58,768 nt of DNA, taken from assembly GCA_003989075.1 (NCBI GenBank), contig RXIX01000007.1:1-58768 (forward strand). Direction: 5' to 3'. Positions 46,857 to 56,122 of this stretch are shown in pieces. A program made the translations under genes and the position numbers. This DNA is from Candidatus Competibacteraceae bacterium (GTDB lineage: Bacteria; Pseudomonadota; Gammaproteobacteria; Competibacterales; Competibacteraceae). Every line of letters starts with the position of its first letter. The stretch's first letter is position 1. The notes below the pieces were generated by a model that worked only from the letters and a program-made list of their open reading frames with translations, was not told the DNA's origin and did no database searches.

Positions 46857-47034
46857 GAGGTGTTATCCGTCGCAAGTACACGCTGCGGAGGAGTGATCAG
46901 GAAAGAAGGTTTGGAAAGAAGTCTAGTTTATCCAAGTTTCCTGGATCGCTGGTGAAACTTTGGCCTGGATTGTGCACCTTAACTGTGCAGAACCCCAACC
47001 GCCGCAGCGCCGCGGTTTCAGGAGGTCCATCACT

Positions 47035-49413
47035 ATGCATCCAGGCCTCGCCGCACCCACGCTCGCGCTATCCCCGCCCCTGCTGGTGATGGCCTATGCC
47101 GCGTTGCGTATTCTTTCCCGCCGCAAGGAAGACCGCCGCATGCTCGAAACCCTGCGCCGCATCGTTCAGGATGTCAGCGCCGCGCCCGATCTGCCCAGTG
47201 CGCTGGCACTCACCGTTAACCGCATCCGTGATGCCATGGGCGTTGCCGCCTGCACCGTCTACCTGAGTGATGAGGACAACCGCGAACATGTGCTGATGGC
47301 CACCGCCGGCCTGAATCCACAGGCCACAGGTCAGGTGCGGCTGCCGCGCCACATCGGTCTGGTGGGCCTGGTCGCCACGCGCCAGGAGCCGATCAACCTT
47401 GAGGATGCGCCGCGCCATCCGCGCTTCCACCCGGTCGATACTGTCGGCGAAGATGACTACCACGCGTTTCTCGGCGCGCCGCTGATTCAGTATCGACGGG
47501 TGCTGGGCGTGCTGCTGGTTCAGGATCGTGCCGTACGCCACTTTCAGGCGCATGAGGTCGATTTTCTGGTCACCCTGGCCGCGCACTTGGCCGGCATTCT
47601 CAATCACGCCCTGCTCAGCGGCGCCACGCAGGCCCTGCTCAACCCGCTGCGCGACAGTCGCTATACCCTGCAAGGTGTCGCCGGCGCACCGGGCGTGGCT
47701 ATCGGGACGGTCACCATTCCGCATCTGCTGGCCGATCTGGACGATGTGCCGGACCGTCCCGCCACCGATCCGCACGCTGAAGCCGCGGCCTTTCGCGCCG
47801 CCATCGCTACGGTCGAGGAGGAACTGCGCCGCGCCAGTGAACGCCTGGCGCCACTGCTGCCGCCGACCGAGCAGGCGCTGTTCACCGTCTACCGAATGCT
47901 GCTGAGCAGCGACAGCCTGCTCTCTGAAACGCTGGCCGGCATCAGGGCCGGTCACTGGGCGCCAGCGGCCTGGCGCGACGCGGTGCTGTCGCGGGCGCGG
48001 CTGCTGGAACAGGCCGAGGATCCCTATCTGAGCACCCGCGCCGAGGATATCCGCGATCTGGGGCGGCGGGTTTTGAACCAGTTGCGCGAACGGCCCGTGG
48101 ACAGACCGCTGGCACCCGCGACCCGCCATGTGCTGGTCGCCGAGGAGATGAGCGTTGCCCATCTGGCAGCAGTGCCACCGGAACGGCTTGCCGGCATTGT
48201 CTGCCTGCGCGGCTCGGCCCTGTCGCATGTTGCCCTGCTGGCGCGGGCCATGGGCGTGCCGGCGGTGATGGGTCTGGGTGACCGGCCACTCGGGCGTTTT
48301 GAAGGCTGCGAGATCATCGTCGATGGTGATCAGGGGCGGGTGCATCTCAATCCCGATGCCACACTGCGCGCTGAATACCAGCACTTGATCAGCGCCGCGG
48401 CGGAGCTGGCAGCGGAACTGGCGACGCTGCGCGATCTGCCGGCAACCACCCAGGATGGCCATCATATACCGCTCTATGCCAAGGCTGGCCTGCTTAGCGA
48501 CATCGCCACCGCTCAGGCCAGTGGCGCCGAGGGGATTGGCCTGTATCGCACCGAATTTGCCTTCATGGTGCGCGAATCCTTCCCCAGCGAGGAGGAACAG
48601 GCGCAGATTTACCGCCAGTTGCTGGCGGCCTTTGCTCCCGCGCCGGTGGTGATGCGCACCCTGGATATCGGCGGCGACAAGAGCCTGCCCTACTTCAGCA
48701 TCGAGGAGAAAAATCCCTTTCTCGGCTGGCGCGGCATGCGCTTTACCCTGGATCATCCCGAGCTGTTCCTGACGCAACTGCGCGCCATGCTGCGCGCCAG
48801 CATCGGGTTGAATAATCTGCGCATCCTGTTCCCGATGATCACGACCGTCGAGGAGGTCGATGATGCGCTGACCCTGTTAGCGCGGGCGCAAGCTGAACTG
48901 CGTGAGGAAGGCCATGCGTTCAGCCGGCCCGAAATCGGGGTGATGATCGAAGTGCCGGCAGCGGCCTGGCAGGCGGGACAACTGGCGCGGCGGGTCGACT
49001 TTCTGTCGGTGGGCACCAACGACCTGACCCAGTATCTGCTGGCGGTGGATCGCGATAATGCCCGGGTCGCGGCGCTGTACGATAACCTGCACCCGGCGCT
49101 GCTCAAGACCATCGCCCACATCATCGCCGCCGGTCACGGCGCCGGCCGGCCGGTGAACCTGTGCGGGGAAATGGCCGCCGATCCAGGCGCGGCGGTGCTG
49201 CTGCTGGGCATGGGTGTAGATAGCCTGAGCGCCAGCGCGATCTGCGTGCCGCGGGTGCGCTGGGCGATTCGCAGTTTCAGCCTTACTGAAACCCAGGCCT
49301 TGGCTAAGCAGGCGCTGGCCCTGAACACCGGGCGTGCGGTGCGCGAGCTGCTCAATGCCGCCCTGCGGCAGGCCGGTCTGGGCGCTCTGGTGCGCGATCA
49401 CACCAGCGGCTGA
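47035..49413 (+). CDS. ptsP: PtsP, nitrogen-PTS enzyme I (GAF-containing PEP-protein phosphotransferase)
   Basis: First kinase of the nitrogen phosphotransferase system. A GAF domain (about residues 50-200, ACTVYLSDEDNREHVLMATAGL) is followed by the PEP-utiliser N-terminal domain, the phosphohistidine segment LRGSALSHVALLARAMGVPAV, and the PEP-binding barrel with GIGLYRTEFAF, MIEVPAAAW, GTNDLTQYLLAVDR and NLCGEMAADP. The ATG at 47035 has AGGAGG 8 bases upstream and gives 792 aa with an unusual hydrophobic N-terminus. The in-frame ATG at 47140 (MLETLRRIVQDV) gives the canonical 757 aa and also has an AAGGAAG. rppH, usually upstream, is absent. Confidence 0.93.
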   Translation: MHPGLAAPTLALSPPLLVMAYAALRILSRRKEDRRMLETLRRIVQDVSAAPDLPSALALTVNRIRDAMGVAACTVYLSDEDNREHVLMATAGLNPQATGQVRLPRHIGLVGLVATRQEPINLEDAPRHPRFHPVDTVGEDDYHAFLGAPLIQYRRVLGVLLVQDRAVRHFQAHEVDFLVTLAAHLAGILNHALLSGATQALLNPLRDSRYTLQGVAGAPGVAIGTVTIPHLLADLDDVPDRPATDPHAEAAAFRAAIATVEEELRRASERLAPLLPPTEQALFTVYRMLLSSDSLLSETLAGIRAGHWAPAAWRDAVLSRARLLEQAEDPYLSTRAEDIRDLGRRVLNQLRERPVDRPLAPATRHVLVAEEMSVAHLAAVPPERLAGIVCLRGSALSHVALLARAMGVPAVMGLGDRPLGRFEGCEIIVDGDQGRVHLNPDATLRAEYQHLISAAAELAAELATLRDLPATTQDGHHIPLYAKAGLLSDIATAQASGAEGIGLYRTEFAFMVRESFPSEEEQAQIYRQLLAAFAPAPVVMRTLDIGGDKSLPYFSIEEKNPFLGWRGMRFTLDHPELFLTQLRAMLRASIGLNNLRILFPMITTVEEVDDALTLLARAQAELREEGHAFSRPEIGVMIEVPAAAWQAGQLARRVDFLSVGTNDLTQYLLAVDRDNARVAALYDNLHPALLKTIAHIIAAGHGAGRPVNLCGEMAADPGAAVLLLGMGVDSLSASAICVPRVRWAIRSFSLTETQALAKQALALNTGRAVRELLNAALRQAGLGALVRDHTSG

Positions 49414-49484: not shown

Positions 49485-49595
49485 GGACTTTCGCTTACCT
49501 GACTTTTTCCGTCATACCCGCGAAAGCGGGTATCCATTCTTTTCAACAAGCTACTGGATTCCCGCATACGCGGGAATGACGAAAAGCGAAAGTCC
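49485..49595. repeat. 111-bp palindromic (MITE/REP-like) element
   Basis: Outer arms GGACTTTCGCT (49485-49495) and AGCGAAAGTCC (49585-49595) are perfect inverted repeats. Inside are two hairpins, CCCGC-GAAA-GCGGG and CCCGC-ATAC-GCGGG, flanked by CGTCAT/ATGACG and ATCCA/TGGAT, so the whole unit is symmetric. The GTCAT.CCCGCG..GCGGG.ATCCA core is a widespread dispersed repeat type. It lies between the convergent ptsP and hsp20 genes. Confidence 0.8.
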
Positions 49596-49647
49596 CGTAA
49601 TGTTTGCGCGCCGGGGCCGCGTCAACCGTGTCCCGGCGCCGGTTCGC

Positions 49648-50088
49648 TCAGCTTTCGATGCTGATCCGCCGCGGTTGCGCCGCTACGCTCTTGGGCACAA
49701 GAACTTCCAGAACGCCATCCTTGCACTTGGCCGATACCTTCTCGGCATCAACCGCCTCCGGCAAGGCAAAACGGCGCAGGAAGCTGCCGCGCACCCGCTC
49801 AACGCGGCGATATTTCTCGGTTTCCTCATGGGTCTCGGTGGAGCGCTGGCCCTTCAGGGTCAACACGCCATTCTCCAGGGTGATATCAATATCCTTGGCC
49901 TCGACCCCCGGCAGATCGGCATGGATTACGAAGCGGCTGGGTTCTTCCTTGATGTCCACCGCCGGCGCCCAATCCGCCAGCAGTTGCCCGCTCTCATCTT
50001 CGCCAAGGCGGCCACTGTCCAGTAGCCGGTTTACCTCCCGCTGCAGTTGATTCAGCAGGTTAAACGGTTCATAGCGCATCAGTGTCAT
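49648..50088 (-). CDS. small heat-shock protein (Hsp20 / alpha-crystallin family)
   Basis: ATP-independent holdase; 146 residues. The N-terminal arm is LMRYEPFNLLNQLQREVNRLL, and the alpha-crystallin domain (about 40-130) has VDIKEEPSRFVIHADLPGVEAKDIDITLENGVLTLKGQR, FLRRFALPEAVDAEKV and KDGVLEVLVPK. The C-terminal IXI-type oligomerisation motif is ISI. GAGGAG lies 8 bases before the ATG at 50088. A strong sigma-32 promoter precedes it, tying it to the rpoH in this window. Confidence 0.95.
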   Translation of the reverse strand: MTLMRYEPFNLLNQLQREVNRLLDSGRLGEDESGQLLADWAPAVDIKEEPSRFVIHADLPGVEAKDIDITLENGVLTLKGQRSTETHEETEKYRRVERVRGSFLRRFALPEAVDAEKVSAKCKDGVLEVLVPKSVAAQPRRISIES

Positions 50089-50151
50089 GGCATGATCTCC
50101 TCATGTTTCCAGTTGCGGCATTCTCGGGAATGCCTCTTGCCTTTGCCGGTA

Positions 50152-50179
50152 AAATGGGGGCGAGACGATGATTTTCAAG
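50152..50179 (-). promoter_or_regulatory. sigma-32 heat-shock promoter of hsp20
   Basis: On the minus strand: -35 CTTGAAA (50173-50179), 13-base spacer, -10 CCCCATTT (50152-50159). This matches the RpoH consensus CTTGAAA-N11-16-CCCCATnT at every fixed position. The transcript leader then contains a perfect hairpin GGCATTC/GAATGCC (50117-50134) and the short palindrome CATGA-GGAGA-TCATG that places the ribosome-binding site in a loop. Confidence 0.88.
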
Positions 50180-50252
50180 AGTTCGCTCCCGCTTTTGCGC
50201 TAAGCTAGCCAGCGCTCCGCATCACCCCCCAGACCGCACCCGGAATGCTCCG

Positions 50253-53200
50253 ATGGCCGAATCCGCACTGTTTATCTGCCACGCTCCTGCCGATGCCGCC
50301 TTTGCCCGGGATTTGGGTCTGGCGCTGGAAACCAGTCGATTCAGCGTCTGGCGCGACACGCGCAATGCCCGCGGCGGCGACCGGCCGGTTTCCGAAGTGC
50401 GCTGGGCGATCGAACAGGCCCGGCAGGTACTGGTGGTGATCAGCCTGAACACCGGCGATTCGGCCTGGCTGCGCCGTGAAATCGAAATCGCCCAGGACAC
50501 CGAGCGCCGCCGGGCTGATCACTATCGGGTGATCCCTCTGCTGCTGCCCGGCGTCGACAGCAGCGTGCTTGCCCAGTGGTTCACGCCCCTGCCGCGCACC
50601 ACGCCGATCACGCTTGGCACCGATGGTCTGGGTGCGGCGCTGCCGGCGCTGCTCAAGGCGCTGGGCGGCATGCTGCCCGGCAGCGATCCGGAGCGCACCG
50701 CCACGCCACCGGCACATCTGGAACTGCACCTGGAAACCGCGCCGGCGGATGCGGCACAACCCTGGCGCCTGCGTGCCCAGTTTCAGCCAGTCGACCCTGC
50801 CGCCGCGCCCCTGACCAGCGAATGCCTGTTGGGTCCATTGTCATCACCGGCGCCGGAGATTGTGCACTGGTATCTGCACAGTCACCCACGTTGGCCCACC
50901 GATACGCTGCGCCAGTTCGCCCGTAACAGCGACACCCTGCTGGCGCACTGGGGTCAGCGCCTGCACCGGGCTACACTCGCAGCACCGCCGCTGCGTGACC
51001 TGGTCGCCGCCTGGCGTCAGGATGGCGCGGGACGGGAATGCAGCCTGAGCCTGCGCGCTGCCGTTGACGATCCGGCTGCTGCGCTGCTCGATCTGCCCTG
51101 GGAATTGCTCCACGATGGCAGTGCCTTCCTGCTGCAGAGCAAACAGCCAGTGCAAATTCAGCGCCGGCTGAGCGGTGGCGGCACAGGGGTGATGCCGGCA
51201 GCGGTCCCCCTGCGCATCCTGGCGATCAGCCCACGTCCGGACGCTGAACCGACCGGCCACCCCGATTACCGGCGCAGCGCACTGCCACTGCTGGATGCCG
51301 TCGACCGTCTCGGCGATCTGCTCGACCTGGAGGTGCTGAACCCGCCGACCCTGACGACGCTGGAACAATGCCTGAACGAGGCCTGGGCCAGCGGCCGACC
51401 GTTCAGTGTCCTGCACCTGGATGGCTATTGCCACGCCAGCACCAGCGAAGGCGCTACATTTGCCTTCGAATCCAGCTACGACCTGCACGCGCCGCTGTGC
51501 CGCGACGCGCATTTCGTGCCGTTCAGCGCCCTGGCGACGCTGCTGGCCACTTATCGCATTCGTCTGGTCAGTCTGGTCGCCGGGCAGGATGGCGCGGACG
51601 CAACGGCCCCCCATGCGCTGGCCGAACTGCTGCTGCGCGCTGGCATCGCCAGTGTCATGGTCCTGCATCCCGATACACCGGCACACACCCTGTCGCGCTT
51701 CTGGACGGCCTTCTGCGAGGAACTGCTGCGCGGCGCGCGCCTCAGCCAGGCCCTGTTCGCCGGGCAGCGCCGCCTGGCCGGGGACAGCTATCGCGCGCCT
51801 GGACTGGGTGGTGGTGGCGTACACCTGCTGGACTGGTTCGCCTTCCGCCTTTATCGCGGCGAGCATGACCCGCGCCTGCTGCTGCGCCCACCGCTGGAGC
51901 TGTGGCGGCGGCTGCAGGCGCGCCCACCTCTGACACCCCTGGCCAATCTGCCGGTGCCCGCCAACTGTTTTGGCCGCGGTCGTGAACTGCTGCTGATCGA
52001 GCGCCTGTTCGAGAATCAGGCCGCGGTTTTCCTGCGCGGTCCCGGCAGCATCGGCAAGACCACCACAGTAGCGGCGCTGGTCGACTGGCTGCGCCGCTGC
52101 GGCCGCTATCGCCATGTCGCCTGCGTGCGCGGCGGCGATATCAGCGAGGTACGCGCCCTGCTGGATACGCTGGGTCAGCAGTTGCTGCCCGAAGGCAACC
52201 GCTGGTCGGTCAGTCGCTATCCCACCCAGTGGCAGGCCCAGGAATACCTGCGGCAAACCCTGCGCGAGCAGCCGGTGCTGATCATCCTCGACCAGATGGA
52301 ACGCTGGCCCTCGGAGAATGATGAAGCCTTCGATCAGTTCTGGCGCGAGCTGCTGCATGCCCTGCCCGGCCTGCGTCTGCTGGGGATGGGCCGCTGCGGG
52401 CCGCCCTTCTTCGCCCAGCCCTGGCTGGAAACCATGCTGGCACCGCTCGATGAGGAAGATGCCCTGGCGCTGCTCAGTCAGGCCCTGATCAGCGCCGGCG
52501 AGATGCCACCGGCCGCCGACAGTGGCCGCAACACCGCTGAGCTGTTCCGCATTGCCACCCTGGCTGGTGGCTCTCCGGGTGCCCTGGTGCGCCTGGCCCA
52601 TGAAATCAGCGTCTCCGGCATTGCCGGTACGCTGGAACGGCTGCGGCCACTGCGCGCCGAGCTGCTGCGCATGCACGAGGATGATCCGCAGTGGCCTCAT
52701 TATCTGGGTCTGGAACTGGCGGTGCAGCGCCTGCCGCTCGACGACCGCCAGCAGTTGCCGATCCTGGCCTTTTTCCGCGAGGGCGCCAACCGCCTGGCCC
52801 TGGGCCGCGCCCTGGATCTGGATACCCAGGCGGTGCAGGCGCTGGGCGAGCGTCTGGTAACCCTGCAACTGGCCGAGGATCGCGGCCATGGCCACCTGTG
52901 GATCGACCCGGCGCTTTCCCAGCATCTGAGCAGCCACCTCAACGGCACGCAGCGCACCACCTGGCGGGCCCGCTGGCGCAGTGGCATGGAATATCTGCTG
53001 CAGATGCTCTACCAGCAGTATTTCAAGGACAACACCCGCACCCTGCGCCTGCTGCGCCTGGAACTAGGCAACCTGCTGGCACTGCTGCGCGATAGCCAGC
53101 ACCAGTCGGAACCGGAGCGCACCGCGCAACTGGCCTCCCGCCTGGAGCAGCTGTTCGCCAACCTCGGCACCCCGAAGGCACTGGCTGAAGTGACCGCCGC

Positions 53201-54557
53201 TCGCGAACGCGCCGGACTGGCCCTGCAGGGCTGGAGCCGGGCGCGCTTCGACACCGAGCGGCTGCGCATCGAACGGCTGCGCGATGAGAGCGCCCTGGAT
53301 GAAGCCTTGCGTGCCGCCCGCCATCTGCTGCGCCAGACCCAGGACGCCGGTCCCGAGGCCTATCCCGGTGCCCCCTACGATCTGGCCCATGCCCATTTCC
53401 TGCTCGGCAAGCTGCTCAAGCAGGCCAATGCTGCCGAAGCCGCAGTCCGTGAGCTGAGCGAAGCCCGGCAGCGCTTCCAGACCCTGGCCAGTGCTGGCAA
53501 TACCAGTGCCGGCCGCATGGCAGCGGTAGCCGATGCCGAGAATGGCGATTGCCTGACCTATCTGCGCCGCCTGCAGGAAGCCGCCGCCGCCTATGAGGCC
53601 GCCCTGGAACATGCCGGCGCCAACCAGCACAGCCCCACTGTAGCCACCCATCGCATGCAACTGGGTCTGGTACGCCAACGTCAGGGCCATTACGCCGCGG
53701 CGGCCACCCTTTACGAAGCCGCCCGACAGACCTTTGAACTGCTCGGCGATCCGGAAAACACCGCCCAGGCCTGGCGCCAGCTCGGCATGGCGCGCAAGCT
53801 CGACGGGCAACTGCTACCCGCGCTGCAGGCCTGCCAGCAGGCGCTGTATCTCTACGAGCGCCAGCGCAATCGCCCGGGCATCGCCGAAACCCTCGGTGAA
53901 CTTGGCCACCTGCATCAGACGCTGAACCAGCTTGAGGAAGCGGTGCTGGCCTATCGGCGCATGGCTGAGCTGTACGCACAGCTGGGCGATGGGCGCGGCG
54001 AGGAAGCCAGCCGCAACAAACTGGCCAACGTGCTGATCCAGCTGCGGCGCCATGACGAAGCCCGCCAGGAACTCTACCGCGCCAGCGAGTGCAACCTGCC
54101 CGACAGCGCCACAGCCCGCAACTGGGCGATCCGCCGCGGTCTGCGCGATGTCGGCCAGTCGGTGCAGGACACGGATGTCGCCGACCAGGCGCGGCGGCAG
54201 GCCATCCAGAAATATCTGGCCTATCGGCGCGCGGGCGGTGAAAACACCCATCCCGGCGCCAAGCTGTGCGCGCAAATTGGTGATGCGATCCGTGCCGGCG
54301 ATACCAGCGCCCTGGCCGCGCGCCTGGAACAAACCGCCGCCAGCCCCAACGTGCCGACCGCTGGCCGCCTGCTGCTGGACAAACTGCGGGCGATCCTGGC
54401 CGGCTCGCGCGACCTGGCACTGGCCAGCGACCCGAACCTGCATTACCAGTACGCGGTCGAGTTGCAACTGTTGCTGGAAGGTCTGCAGCGCCCGACGGAG
54501 ATTCAGTCCGCCTCCACCGGATCAGGCGATCTGCCGCCCGCGATCAACGGCAAGTAG
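50253..54557 (+). CDS. TIR - degenerate CHAT - STAND NTPase - TPR multidomain protein
   Basis: 1434 residues in four parts. (1) TIR domain, about 1-140: ALFICHAPADAAFARDL, VWRDT, VLVVISLNTGDSAWLRREIEIA; the expected NADase glutamate is E76. (2) CHAT (caspase-like) region, about 170-550, with LLDLPWELLHD typical of CHAT. The catalytic His block reads HLDGYCH (DGHG expected) and the Cys block reads LVSLVAGQDG (NACxSG expected), so both catalytic residues are replaced. (3) STAND/NB-ARC-like NTPase, about 560-800: Walker A RGPGSIGKTT (about 596), Walker B VLIILDQ (about 675), LLGMGR. (4) TPR-type helical repeats (about 1010-1290) and a helical tail. A ligand-sensing, oligomerising immune or stress protein is the family expectation; the trigger and output here are unknown. 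Confidence 0.85.
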   Translation: MAESALFICHAPADAAFARDLGLALETSRFSVWRDTRNARGGDRPVSEVRWAIEQARQVLVVISLNTGDSAWLRREIEIAQDTERRRADHYRVIPLLLPGVDSSVLAQWFTPLPRTTPITLGTDGLGAALPALLKALGGMLPGSDPERTATPPAHLELHLETAPADAAQPWRLRAQFQPVDPAAAPLTSECLLGPLSSPAPEIVHWYLHSHPRWPTDTLRQFARNSDTLLAHWGQRLHRATLAAPPLRDLVAAWRQDGAGRECSLSLRAAVDDPAAALLDLPWELLHDGSAFLLQSKQPVQIQRRLSGGGTGVMPAAVPLRILAISPRPDAEPTGHPDYRRSALPLLDAVDRLGDLLDLEVLNPPTLTTLEQCLNEAWASGRPFSVLHLDGYCHASTSEGATFAFESSYDLHAPLCRDAHFVPFSALATLLATYRIRLVSLVAGQDGADATAPHALAELLLRAGIASVMVLHPDTPAHTLSRFWTAFCEELLRGARLSQALFAGQRRLAGDSYRAPGLGGGGVHLLDWFAFRLYRGEHDPRLLLRPPLELWRRLQARPPLTPLANLPVPANCFGRGRELLLIERLFENQAAVFLRGPGSIGKTTTVAALVDWLRRCGRYRHVACVRGGDISEVRALLDTLGQQLLPEGNRWSVSRYPTQWQAQEYLRQTLREQPVLIILDQMERWPSENDEAFDQFWRELLHALPGLRLLGMGRCGPPFFAQPWLETMLAPLDEEDALALLSQALISAGEMPPAADSGRNTAELFRIATLAGGSPGALVRLAHEISVSGIAGTLERLRPLRAELLRMHEDDPQWPHYLGLELAVQRLPLDDRQQLPILAFFREGANRLALGRALDLDTQAVQALGERLVTLQLAEDRGHGHLWIDPALSQHLSSHLNGTQRTTWRARWRSGMEYLLQMLYQQYFKDNTRTLRLLRLELGNLLALLRDSQHQSEPERTAQLASRLEQLFANLGTPKALAEVTAARERAGLALQGWSRARFDTERLRIERLRDESALDEALRAARHLLRQTQDAGPEAYPGAPYDLAHAHFLLGKLLKQANAAEAAVRELSEARQRFQTLASAGNTSAGRMAAVADAENGDCLTYLRRLQEAAAAYEAALEHAGANQHSPTVATHRMQLGLVRQRQGHYAAAATLYEAARQTFELLGDPENTAQAWRQLGMARKLDGQLLPALQACQQALYLYERQRNRPGIAETLGELGHLHQTLNQLEEAVLAYRRMAELYAQLGDGRGEEASRNKLANVLIQLRRHDEARQELYRASECNLPDSATARNWAIRRGLRDVGQSVQDTDVADQARRQAIQKYLAYRRAGGENTHPGAKLCAQIGDAIRAGDTSALAARLEQTAASPNVPTAGRLLLDKLRAILAGSRDLALASDPNLHYQYAVELQLLLEGLQRPTEIQSASTGSGDLPPAINGK

Positions 54558-55984
54558 CGCGCCCGCAAGCGCTCCCGGCAGCGTTCGAAGGTACTGCTGA
54601 TGCAGGTCGCGTTGCGAATCCGTTCCAGTTGCGGCCAGGTCGCCCGCTCACCGCTGCGGATGAATTCGACGATGCGCTCGGCGCTGGGATTGGCGAACAC
54701 GTCGAACAGGGTTCCCACCCAGGAGGGTGGCACAATGGTGATATCGCCGCTGTAGTTCTGATCGGCCATGGAATAGGCCTTATCGAGCAGCAACCCGAGG
54801 GCATGCGAGTCGACGTTCTGTCGCGCCAGATCCAGCAGATGCCGGGTATAGAGGTGCACGGTCGAGCCCATGATCTGCCGGGTGAACGGCAACAGGCCCT
54901 TGCGGGGCTTGGCTTCGCGCAGGAAGGGCACGATATGCGGATTGGTCTGGCTGACAATGTAGTGATTGACGTTGTGCATGCGTGCCACCCGCAGCATCGG
55001 CAGGTCACTGTTGAGAGTACCGTCCACCCACTTGTCATTGGGCATGTAGGGCACCACGATGCCTTTGAAATCCTTGGCCTCGAGCATCACCGCCGGGAAG
55101 ACACCGGGAATCGCGCAGGATGCCAGGGCGGCGCGGCGCACCAGCACGTTGGGCGCACTCAGATAGTTCAGCAGGCGCGAATGCTGGTGGGGCCGCGCCG
55201 GCGAGACGGGAATGTTGATGATGCGCCCGGTGCGATCAAAGGCTTCCTCGAAACTCAGCGCGTCAACGTTCTCCTCGATGCAGCGTTCCAGCTGACCGGC
55301 ATCCATCAGCGCGCCGCCACGGAGCAGATTGCGAAAGCCCAGGCTGCGCCAGGCATCCACGGCGAAGGAATGCGGCTCGAACAGCCGCGCCAGCTCGGCA
55401 TCGGTGCGGGTACCGAGCATGGCGGCGATGATGGAACCGGCGCTGGATCCGGAAATCACCCGCGGCAACAGGCCCTCGCCATGCAGCGCCTTGATCACGC
55501 CCAGGTGAAACAGGCCCAGCGTGGCACCGCCGCTGAGCATCAGCGCCGAACGGCCAAAGCTCTGCGCGGTGCGCTCGAAAAAGCGCAGTTTGGCCGGCGC
55601 GGGAAACTCCGGATATTCGCCATCGCACAGCTCATCCAGCGCAGTCGCAACCTCCTGGAGATACTCGCTCAGCAACAGCTTGGTGCCAAAGCGGCATTGC
55701 GTATAAAGGGCCGGGTTGGCCATGTTGCCCAGATTACCGTGTAGCCCCTCGTGCAGGCTGAACACCCGCCGCGTCACGTCGCCATGCTGGCGCAGTTCGC
55801 GCAGTTCCAGCAGCCGCGCCCGCAGCAGCCGATAATCATAGTCAGGCGATTCGTCGTCCTGTTTCCACGCCTCGGCGCCGGAGATGCGGTCGTGCTCCTG
55901 TGCCGCAGCGGACCATTCGGCATAATCCTCGGCTTGGTTCATGGCGATTTCGCAATTCTGCAAGGCACGGCGGTGAGCATTCAT
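54503..55984 (-). CDS. patatin-like phospholipase with DUF3336 N-terminal domain
   Basis: 493 residues from the ATG at 55984 (ATG 55942 also possible; no strong ribosome-binding site at either). The N-terminal DUF3336 region is DYAEWSAAAQEHDRISGAEAW and YDYRLLRARLLELRELR. The patatin fold follows: glycine loop LSGGATLGLFHLGV, nucleophile GSSAGS (GxSxG), and catalytic Asp in KWVDGTLNSDLP. It resembles the SDP1/TGL-type bacterial lipases that are widely conserved and probably act on membrane or storage lipids. Its 3' end overlaps the TIR-STAND gene by 55 bases, tail to tail. Confidence 0.9.
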   Translation of the reverse strand: MNAHRRALQNCEIAMNQAEDYAEWSAAAQEHDRISGAEAWKQDDESPDYDYRLLRARLLELRELRQHGDVTRRVFSLHEGLHGNLGNMANPALYTQCRFGTKLLLSEYLQEVATALDELCDGEYPEFPAPAKLRFFERTAQSFGRSALMLSGGATLGLFHLGVIKALHGEGLLPRVISGSSAGSIIAAMLGTRTDAELARLFEPHSFAVDAWRSLGFRNLLRGGALMDAGQLERCIEENVDALSFEEAFDRTGRIINIPVSPARPHQHSRLLNYLSAPNVLVRRAALASCAIPGVFPAVMLEAKDFKGIVVPYMPNDKWVDGTLNSDLPMLRVARMHNVNHYIVSQTNPHIVPFLREAKPRKGLLPFTRQIMGSTVHLYTRHLLDLARQNVDSHALGLLLDKAYSMADQNYSGDITIVPPSWVGTLFDVFANPSAERIVEFIRSGERATWPQLERIRNATCISSTFERCRERLRARYLPLIAGGRSPDPVEAD

Positions 55985-56122
55985 GGATAGCGCAATCCAG
56001 TTGGCATGGCACGGTCTGTGGATGGGCTTTTCACATAGCAAGAAAAACGCACCCTGTCATGGCCAAACCGGCTTACTTGTTCCGCAATTGCATCACCACG
56101 CCGCCCACCCAGGATCACGCTC

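What the first reader, a model, noticed from the sequence alone, without database searches (positions are those of the whole stretch)
50253..54557. TIR / pseudo-CHAT / STAND / TPR protein: candidate undescribed defence or cell-death sensor
A single 1434-residue protein combines an N-terminal TIR with its candidate NADase glutamate (E76), a CHAT domain that has lost both catalytic residues (HLDGYCH instead of DGHG, LVAGQDG instead of NACxSG), a STAND NTPase and a TPR sensor array. In known systems either TIR or CHAT is the effector; here the dead CHAT between TIR and NTPase looks like a scaffold or an allosteric relay. I know of no characterised system with this order.
Basis: partly seen in the sequence, partly recalled or inferred. 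Interest (0 to 1): 0.75.

Follow-up and report, generated by a model that had tools for sequence, protein, structure and literature searches.

The report
Core TIR switch, dead caspase-like domain
A large immune-receptor-like bacterial protein, with an apparently intact TIR enzyme part and an evolutionarily disarmed caspase-like part, turns out not to be a mobile anti-virus gene but a fixed gene of a family of wastewater bacteria, almost always back-to-back with a heat-shock chaperone gene, which hints at an inbuilt stress or cell-death switch.

Summary
ORF 50253-54557 encodes 1434 aa with TIR, CHAT, STAND NTPase and TPRs, by sequence and predicted fold. TIR E76 (WxxxE) is invariant in 26 orthologues; the CHAT Cys is lost in 26/26, the His in 25/26. 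The host is Candidatus Competibacteraceae.

The interpretation changes. This is not an accessory defence gene. In nine genera it occurs in 30 of 33 genomes, at one locus, under strong purifying selection (dN/dS mostly 0.10-0.17), and its divergence tracks its neighbours'. It is divergently paired with an hsp20 gene bearing a sigma-32-type promoter in 26 of 27 loci, although other neighbours vary.

The domain order is not unique: other Pseudomonadota have it, mostly with both effectors' key residues intact. This clade is a derived, fixed version that lost CHAT catalysis on a long stem branch but kept the fold.

Most likely mechanism (inferred): TPRs sense a conserved cue, the STAND module oligomerises, the TIR acts on NAD; dead CHAT is a structural relay. 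No activity or trigger has been shown. New variant of a known kind.

The parts
50253..54557 (+). TIR / pseudo-CHAT / STAND / TPR gene, 1434 aa
50253..50672 (+). TIR domain, residues 1-140
   Evidence: Pfam TIR_2; fold matches Z about 15
50466..50480 (+). WxxxE motif, W72 to E76 (candidate NADase glutamate)
   Evidence: E76 26/26 and W72 25/26 orthologues; aligned with AbTIR
50697..51890 (+). CHAT fold, residues 149-546, catalytically dead
   Evidence: dN/dS 0.14-0.20 in close pairs
51426..51428 (+). Y392 in place of the catalytic His (DGHG of relatives)
51582..51584 (+). G444 in place of the catalytic Cys (EACQSA of relatives)
51948..52967 (+). STAND NTPase and winged-helix region, residues 566-905
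   Evidence: Pfam AAA_16/NB-ARC below cut-off; 6mfv match
52038..52061 (+). Walker A GPGSIGKT, residues 596-603
   Evidence: K602 26/26
52278..52292 (+). Walker B LIILD, residues 676-680
   Evidence: D680 26/26
52968..54152 (+). TPR superhelix, residues 906-1300; residues 1261-1300 (54033-54152) are the most conserved stretch of the protein
54153..54488 (+). conserved C-terminal tail, residues 1301-1412
49648..50088 (-). hsp20 gene, divergent partner
   Evidence: adjacent in 26 of 27 orthologous loci with upstream DNA, 155-176 bp apart
50151..50179 (-). sigma-32-type promoter of hsp20 (CTTGAAA, 13-15 bases, CCCCAT)
   Evidence: TTTCAAG invariant; pattern found in 24 of 26 loci
50193..50206 (+). 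conserved box TTTTGCGCTAAGCT, probable -10 region of the main gene (TAAGCT 50201-50206; inference)
   Evidence: box found in 26/26 loci
46960..49413 (+). ptsP-like gene (EI of a PTS with GAF), frequent but not universal neighbour

Best explanation
It is a single-polypeptide, NLR-like switch fixed in the Competibacteraceae. It belongs to a wider set of TIR-CHAT-STAND-TPR proteins, most of which keep both effector domains intact, but its clade lost CHAT protease residues on its stem and kept the CHAT fold as a structural or relay module. Shown by sequence and predicted structure: the four modules, conserved TIR E76 and Walker residues, loss of the CHAT dyad, purifying selection, vertical inheritance at one locus, divergent pairing with hsp20. 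Inferred: the protein rests autoinhibited; the conserved TPR end binds a conserved cellular ligand or partner rather than a variable phage antigen; the STAND module exchanges nucleotide and oligomerises; clustered TIR domains hydrolyse or convert NAD+, giving dormancy, death or a signal. Coupling to heat-shock or proteotoxic stress through the shared promoter region is suggested, not shown.
For: Domains and folds. E76, K602, D680 26/26 and AbTIR alignment. CHAT dyad lost in all orthologues, kept in most relatives. dN/dS mostly 0.10-0.17. Orthologue in 29 of 38 other family genomes, i.e. 30 of 33 genomes of nine genera counting its own, at the same locus; divergence correlates with neighbours. 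Hsp20 pairing 26/27 and conserved intergenic region. Absence from viral contigs.
Against: No NADase activity, oligomer or ligand has been shown. Conserved WxxxE does not prove catalysis. The sigma-32 promoter also serves hsp20 where the gene is absent, so co-regulation is unproven. Synteny can persist by descent alone. Walker B is LDQ where relatives have LDN, so ATP hydrolysis may be altered.
Confidence: 0.5

Rival explanations
1. An anti-phage abortive-infection sensor, Avs-like in logic, retained as a core gene because its TPRs recognise a phage feature that cannot easily change; the TIR is the effector.
For: TIR, CHAT and STAND modules are typical of bacterial conflict systems (PMC7159879, PMC10907252, PMC8195603). 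PADLOC's best matches are TIR parts of defence proteins.
Against: No defence gene was recognised beside it; vertical, near-universal presence; hyperconserved sensor end; PADLOC matches cover only the TIR and single TPR stretches.
Confidence: 0.22
2. A non-lethal regulatory or assembly scaffold: the TIR acts by self-association rather than NAD cleavage, and the protein organises a stress or signalling complex with Hsp20 or another partner.
For: Core-gene behaviour, conserved TPR end, dead CHAT; hsp20 neighbour.
Against: The full set of TIR positions, including WxxxE, is invariant although a scaffold would not need it.
Confidence: 0.2
3. A decaying remnant of a dual-effector defence protein with no present function.
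For: Loss of CHAT catalysis; two loci split by frameshifts (L074, L076).
Against: dN/dS mostly 0.10-0.17; intact frame in nearly all genomes; the two splits lie at different places and fit assembly errors.
Confidence: 0.03

Closest known systems
TIR-CHAT-STAND-TPR proteins of other Pseudomonadota and paralogues in Competibacteraceae (loci L159, L160, L163, L077, L081; uncharacterised)
   Same: same domain order over the full length at 31-42% identity
   Different: those keep DGHG and EACQSA and the TIR glutamate; none of the examined loci has an hsp20 match near it
TIR-AP-ATPase-TPR proteins of VMAP ternary conflict systems (PMC7159879)
   Same: N-terminal TIR, STAND/AP-ATPase, C-terminal TPR
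   Different: no CHAT described between them; encoded in multi-gene conflict loci
Thiohalocapsa DGR 2 target with CHAT and TIR (PMC10907252)
   Same: CHAT and TIR in one protein
   Different: a retroelement-diversified sensor; the present gene has a hyperconserved sensor end
Csx29 (TPR-CHAT of Craspase)
   Same: CHAT fold, Z 18.8 over 303 residues
   Different: active protease of a CRISPR effector; here the dyad is lost and TPRs are C-terminal
Plant TIR-NLRs (RUN1, ROQ1, RPP1)
   Same: TIR on an NTPase switch with a repeat sensor; TIR fold match
   Different: LRR sensor, no CHAT; relation is by analogy of logic, not by descent of the whole protein
Avs/AVAST and bNACHT antiphage STAND proteins
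   Same: STAND switch with effector and repeat sensor (general knowledge)
   Different: no PADLOC Avs match; not in a defence island

Membership tests
Catalytic TIR NADase | TIR fold | tested here: met
   Z about 15 to SPARTA, RUN1, SARM1 TIRs
Catalytic TIR NADase | glutamate in the WxxxE position | tested here: met
   E76 in 26/26 orthologues, aligned with AbTIR
Catalytic TIR NADase | NAD+ cleavage | not testable with these tools
   needs biochemistry
CHAT protease | CHAT fold | tested here: met
   Pfam above cut-off; Z 18.8 to Csx29
CHAT protease | His-Cys dyad | tested here: not met
   Y392 and G444; Cys lost in 26/26, His in 25/26 orthologues
STAND / AP-ATPase NTPase | Walker A and Walker B | tested here: met
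   K602 and D680 26/26
STAND / AP-ATPase NTPase | overall STAND-TPR fold | tested here: met
   6mfv_A E 4.5e-12 over 730 columns
STAND / AP-ATPase NTPase | ligand-induced oligomerisation | not testable with these tools
   needs structure or biophysics
Avs (AVAST) antiphage system | match to an Avs profile | tested here: not met
   no Avs model among PADLOC matches at E up to 1
Accessory defence-island gene | patchy, horizontally exchanged, beside other defence genes | tested here: not met
Csx29 / Craspase | Cas7-11 partner and N-terminal TPR | not tested
   the window was not scanned for Cas7-11; the TPRs are C-terminal here
Heat-shock (sigma-32) regulon member | sigma-32 promoter on the gene's own strand | tested here: not met
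   found only towards hsp20

The most novel reading that the evidence does not exclude
A TIR-based NLR-like receptor fixed as a core gene and tied to proteostasis: together with its divergent Hsp20 partner it monitors heat or protein damage and triggers NAD-dependent dormancy or death, with a former caspase-like effector converted into the relay.
Probability: 0.18. Interest if true: 0.82.

Novelty: new variant of a known kind. Interest (0 to 1): 0.6.

Why it matters
Bacterial TIR and NLR-like proteins are mostly studied as mobile anti-phage genes. A family-wide, vertically inherited one with a hyperconserved sensor end and a heat-shock neighbour makes it testable whether such proteins also became physiological death or stress switches in bacteria. 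It also gives a clear case of a caspase-like protease turned pseudo-enzyme inside a protein whose relatives keep both effectors, useful for studying how dead enzymes become regulators. The hosts are abundant glycogen-accumulating bacteria of wastewater plants.

Tried and rejected
Mobile-element origin: no relative in viral contigs, only two distant CHAT matches among plasmid records. A sigma-32 promoter for the main gene itself: none on its strand. Empty-site comparison in the genera without the gene: their hsp20 lies in other surroundings and their ptsP is a paralogue of about 50% identity, so no clean empty site could be shown. One or several CHAT losses: parsimony gives four changes on the tree, but a tree that joins the core clade with L124/L125 is not rejected (p-AU 0.155). 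Literature: no paper on a TIR protein of Competibacter and none found describing this exact architecture; the library holds open-licence papers only.

Full report
Observation. The ORF is real, at 50253-54557 on the + strand, 1434 aa. Pfam finds TIR_2, CHAT and TPR_12 above curated cut-offs and AAA_16, AAA_22 and NB-ARC just below theirs. AlphaFold2 models built on alignments of orthologues place a TIR fold at residues 1-140 and a two-lobed CHAT fold at 149-540; the closest solved structures are Csx29 (Z 18.8), SAVED-CHAT (17.8) and separase (17.0). The C-terminal half is best matched by the STAND-TPR protein 6mfv and by LGN/Pins TPRs.

Catalytic residues. In an alignment of 22 relatives and a larger motif table, TIR E76 is present in all 26 orthologues; W33, D35 and H10 are also invariant and W72 is kept in 25. 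E76 aligns with the WxxxE glutamate of the NAD+ hydrolase AbTIR. The CHAT His of DGHG has become Y392 and the Cys of EACQSA has become G444. In the orthologues the Cys is lost in 26/26 and the His in 25/26 (L056 keeps DGH but lacks the Cys). Both catalytic loops are among the least conserved parts of the CHAT core: 0.48 and 0.34 mean pairwise identity against 0.645 for the whole core.

Host and distribution. Named relatives are Candidatus Competibacter, Contendobacter and other Competibacteraceae, with a few MAGs whose record names point elsewhere and are probably mislabelled. A search of 38 other genomes of the family finds the orthologue in 29, mostly at 60-66% identity. By genus it is in 30 of 33 genomes of nine genera, own genome included, and in none of six genomes of four further genera. 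The three gaps are two fragmentary genomes (75% and 58% complete) and one in which hsp20 begins 120 bases from a contig end. G005 carries a 42% relative at another place, and some genomes also carry a 33-37% paralogue with an intact CHAT dyad. Distances of the gene and of its neighbours correlate (Mantel r 0.81 ptsP, 0.68 hsp20, 0.91 cation efflux, 0.97 patatin). This is vertical inheritance of a fixed gene.

Selection. Pairwise dN/dS of the whole protein is 0.10-0.17 in the closer pairs and 0.24 in the most distant pair that could be measured. In the closer pairs CHAT has 0.14-0.23, the TPR end and tail mostly 0.04-0.09 (up to 0.13), and the linker 141-200 about 0.2-0.8. The most conserved stretch is residues 1261-1300. 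The pseudo-CHAT is constrained as a fold, and the sensor end is conserved rather than diversifying.

Locus. hsp20 is divergent in 26 of 27 orthologous loci that have upstream DNA, the exception being L056, with 155-176 bp between the two starts. The next genes vary: ptsP is present in about half of the loci with enough upstream DNA, and patatin, yihY or other genes follow downstream. The shared region has a sigma-32-type promoter towards hsp20 (invariant TTTCAAG; pattern in 24 of 26 loci) and a conserved box TTTTGCGCTAAGCT towards the main gene, probably its -10 region (inference). The sigma-32-type promoter is also upstream of hsp20 where the main gene is absent, so it does not by itself show that the main gene is heat-induced.

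Origin. Other Pseudomonadota hold full-length proteins with the same order at 31-34% identity, mostly with intact CHAT dyad and TIR glutamate. Two relatives (L166, L167) have no TIR. L124 and L125 (family f117) lost both CHAT residues, and L162 and L165 lost the Cys alone. The Competibacteraceae clade is well supported with a stem of about 1.0-1.24 changes per column. Parsimony puts CHAT inactivation at four places on the tree, though a joint loss with the f117 pair cannot be excluded. For the tree, one relative (L158) with an in-frame stop was read as two joined pieces. The simplest history, inferred from extant sequences, is a dual-effector ancestor, loss of the protease, fast change on the stem and later strong constraint.

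Mechanism. From general knowledge of NLR and STAND proteins: the TPR end senses, the STAND module switches and oligomerises, and the TIRs act on NAD+. The dead CHAT could hold TIR and STAND apart or transmit the conformational change. The trigger is unknown; the conserved sensor end and the hsp20 neighbour favour an internal stress cue over a variable phage antigen. None of these steps has been measured.

Known work. TIR-AP-ATPase-TPR proteins are described in VMAP ternary systems (PMC7159879), a CHAT plus TIR protein in Thiohalocapsa as a retroelement-diversified target (PMC10907252), and inactive NTPase modules in conflict systems (PMC8195603). No paper found in the searched library describes the present architecture or its fixation as a core gene.

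Verdict. Real and well defined, but not a defence-island system. It is a new variant of the known STAND/NLR-like kind, of interest because it is fixed in a family, partly disarmed and paired with a heat-shock chaperone gene.

Noticed in passing
window 49490-49600: A palindromic dispersed repeat of about 110 bp with some 40 near full-length copies in the own genome, lying between ptsP and hsp20.
   Followed up: partly
window 50117-50134, minus strand (hsp20 5' leader): A 7-bp hairpin GGCATTC/GAATGCC between the sigma-32 promoter and the ribosome-binding site of hsp20; across 21 loci 89% of cells pair, with both-sided changes at four of seven pairs. It may be an RNA structure that controls hsp20.
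   Followed up: partly
window 54503-54557: The convergent patatin-like ORF (54503-56041, minus strand) overlaps the 3' end of the main gene by about 55 bases.
   Followed up: no
own genome G000:C8:31890-32126 (locus L154): A second, short CHAT match in a 123-aa frame with one in-frame TAG, perhaps a remnant of another CHAT gene.
   Followed up: no
loci L124 and L125 (family f117): TIR-CHAT-STAND-TPR proteins that also lost both CHAT residues, with a change in the TIR W/D positions but E kept; in both an ankyrin-repeat-like ORF lies just upstream on the same strand.
   Followed up: partly
loci L162 and L165: Relatives that lost only the CHAT Cys, each in a genome that also holds a copy with an intact dyad.
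   Followed up: partly
loci L074 and L076: The gene is split by frameshifts at different places (about residues 548 and 930), probably assembly errors.
   Followed up: no
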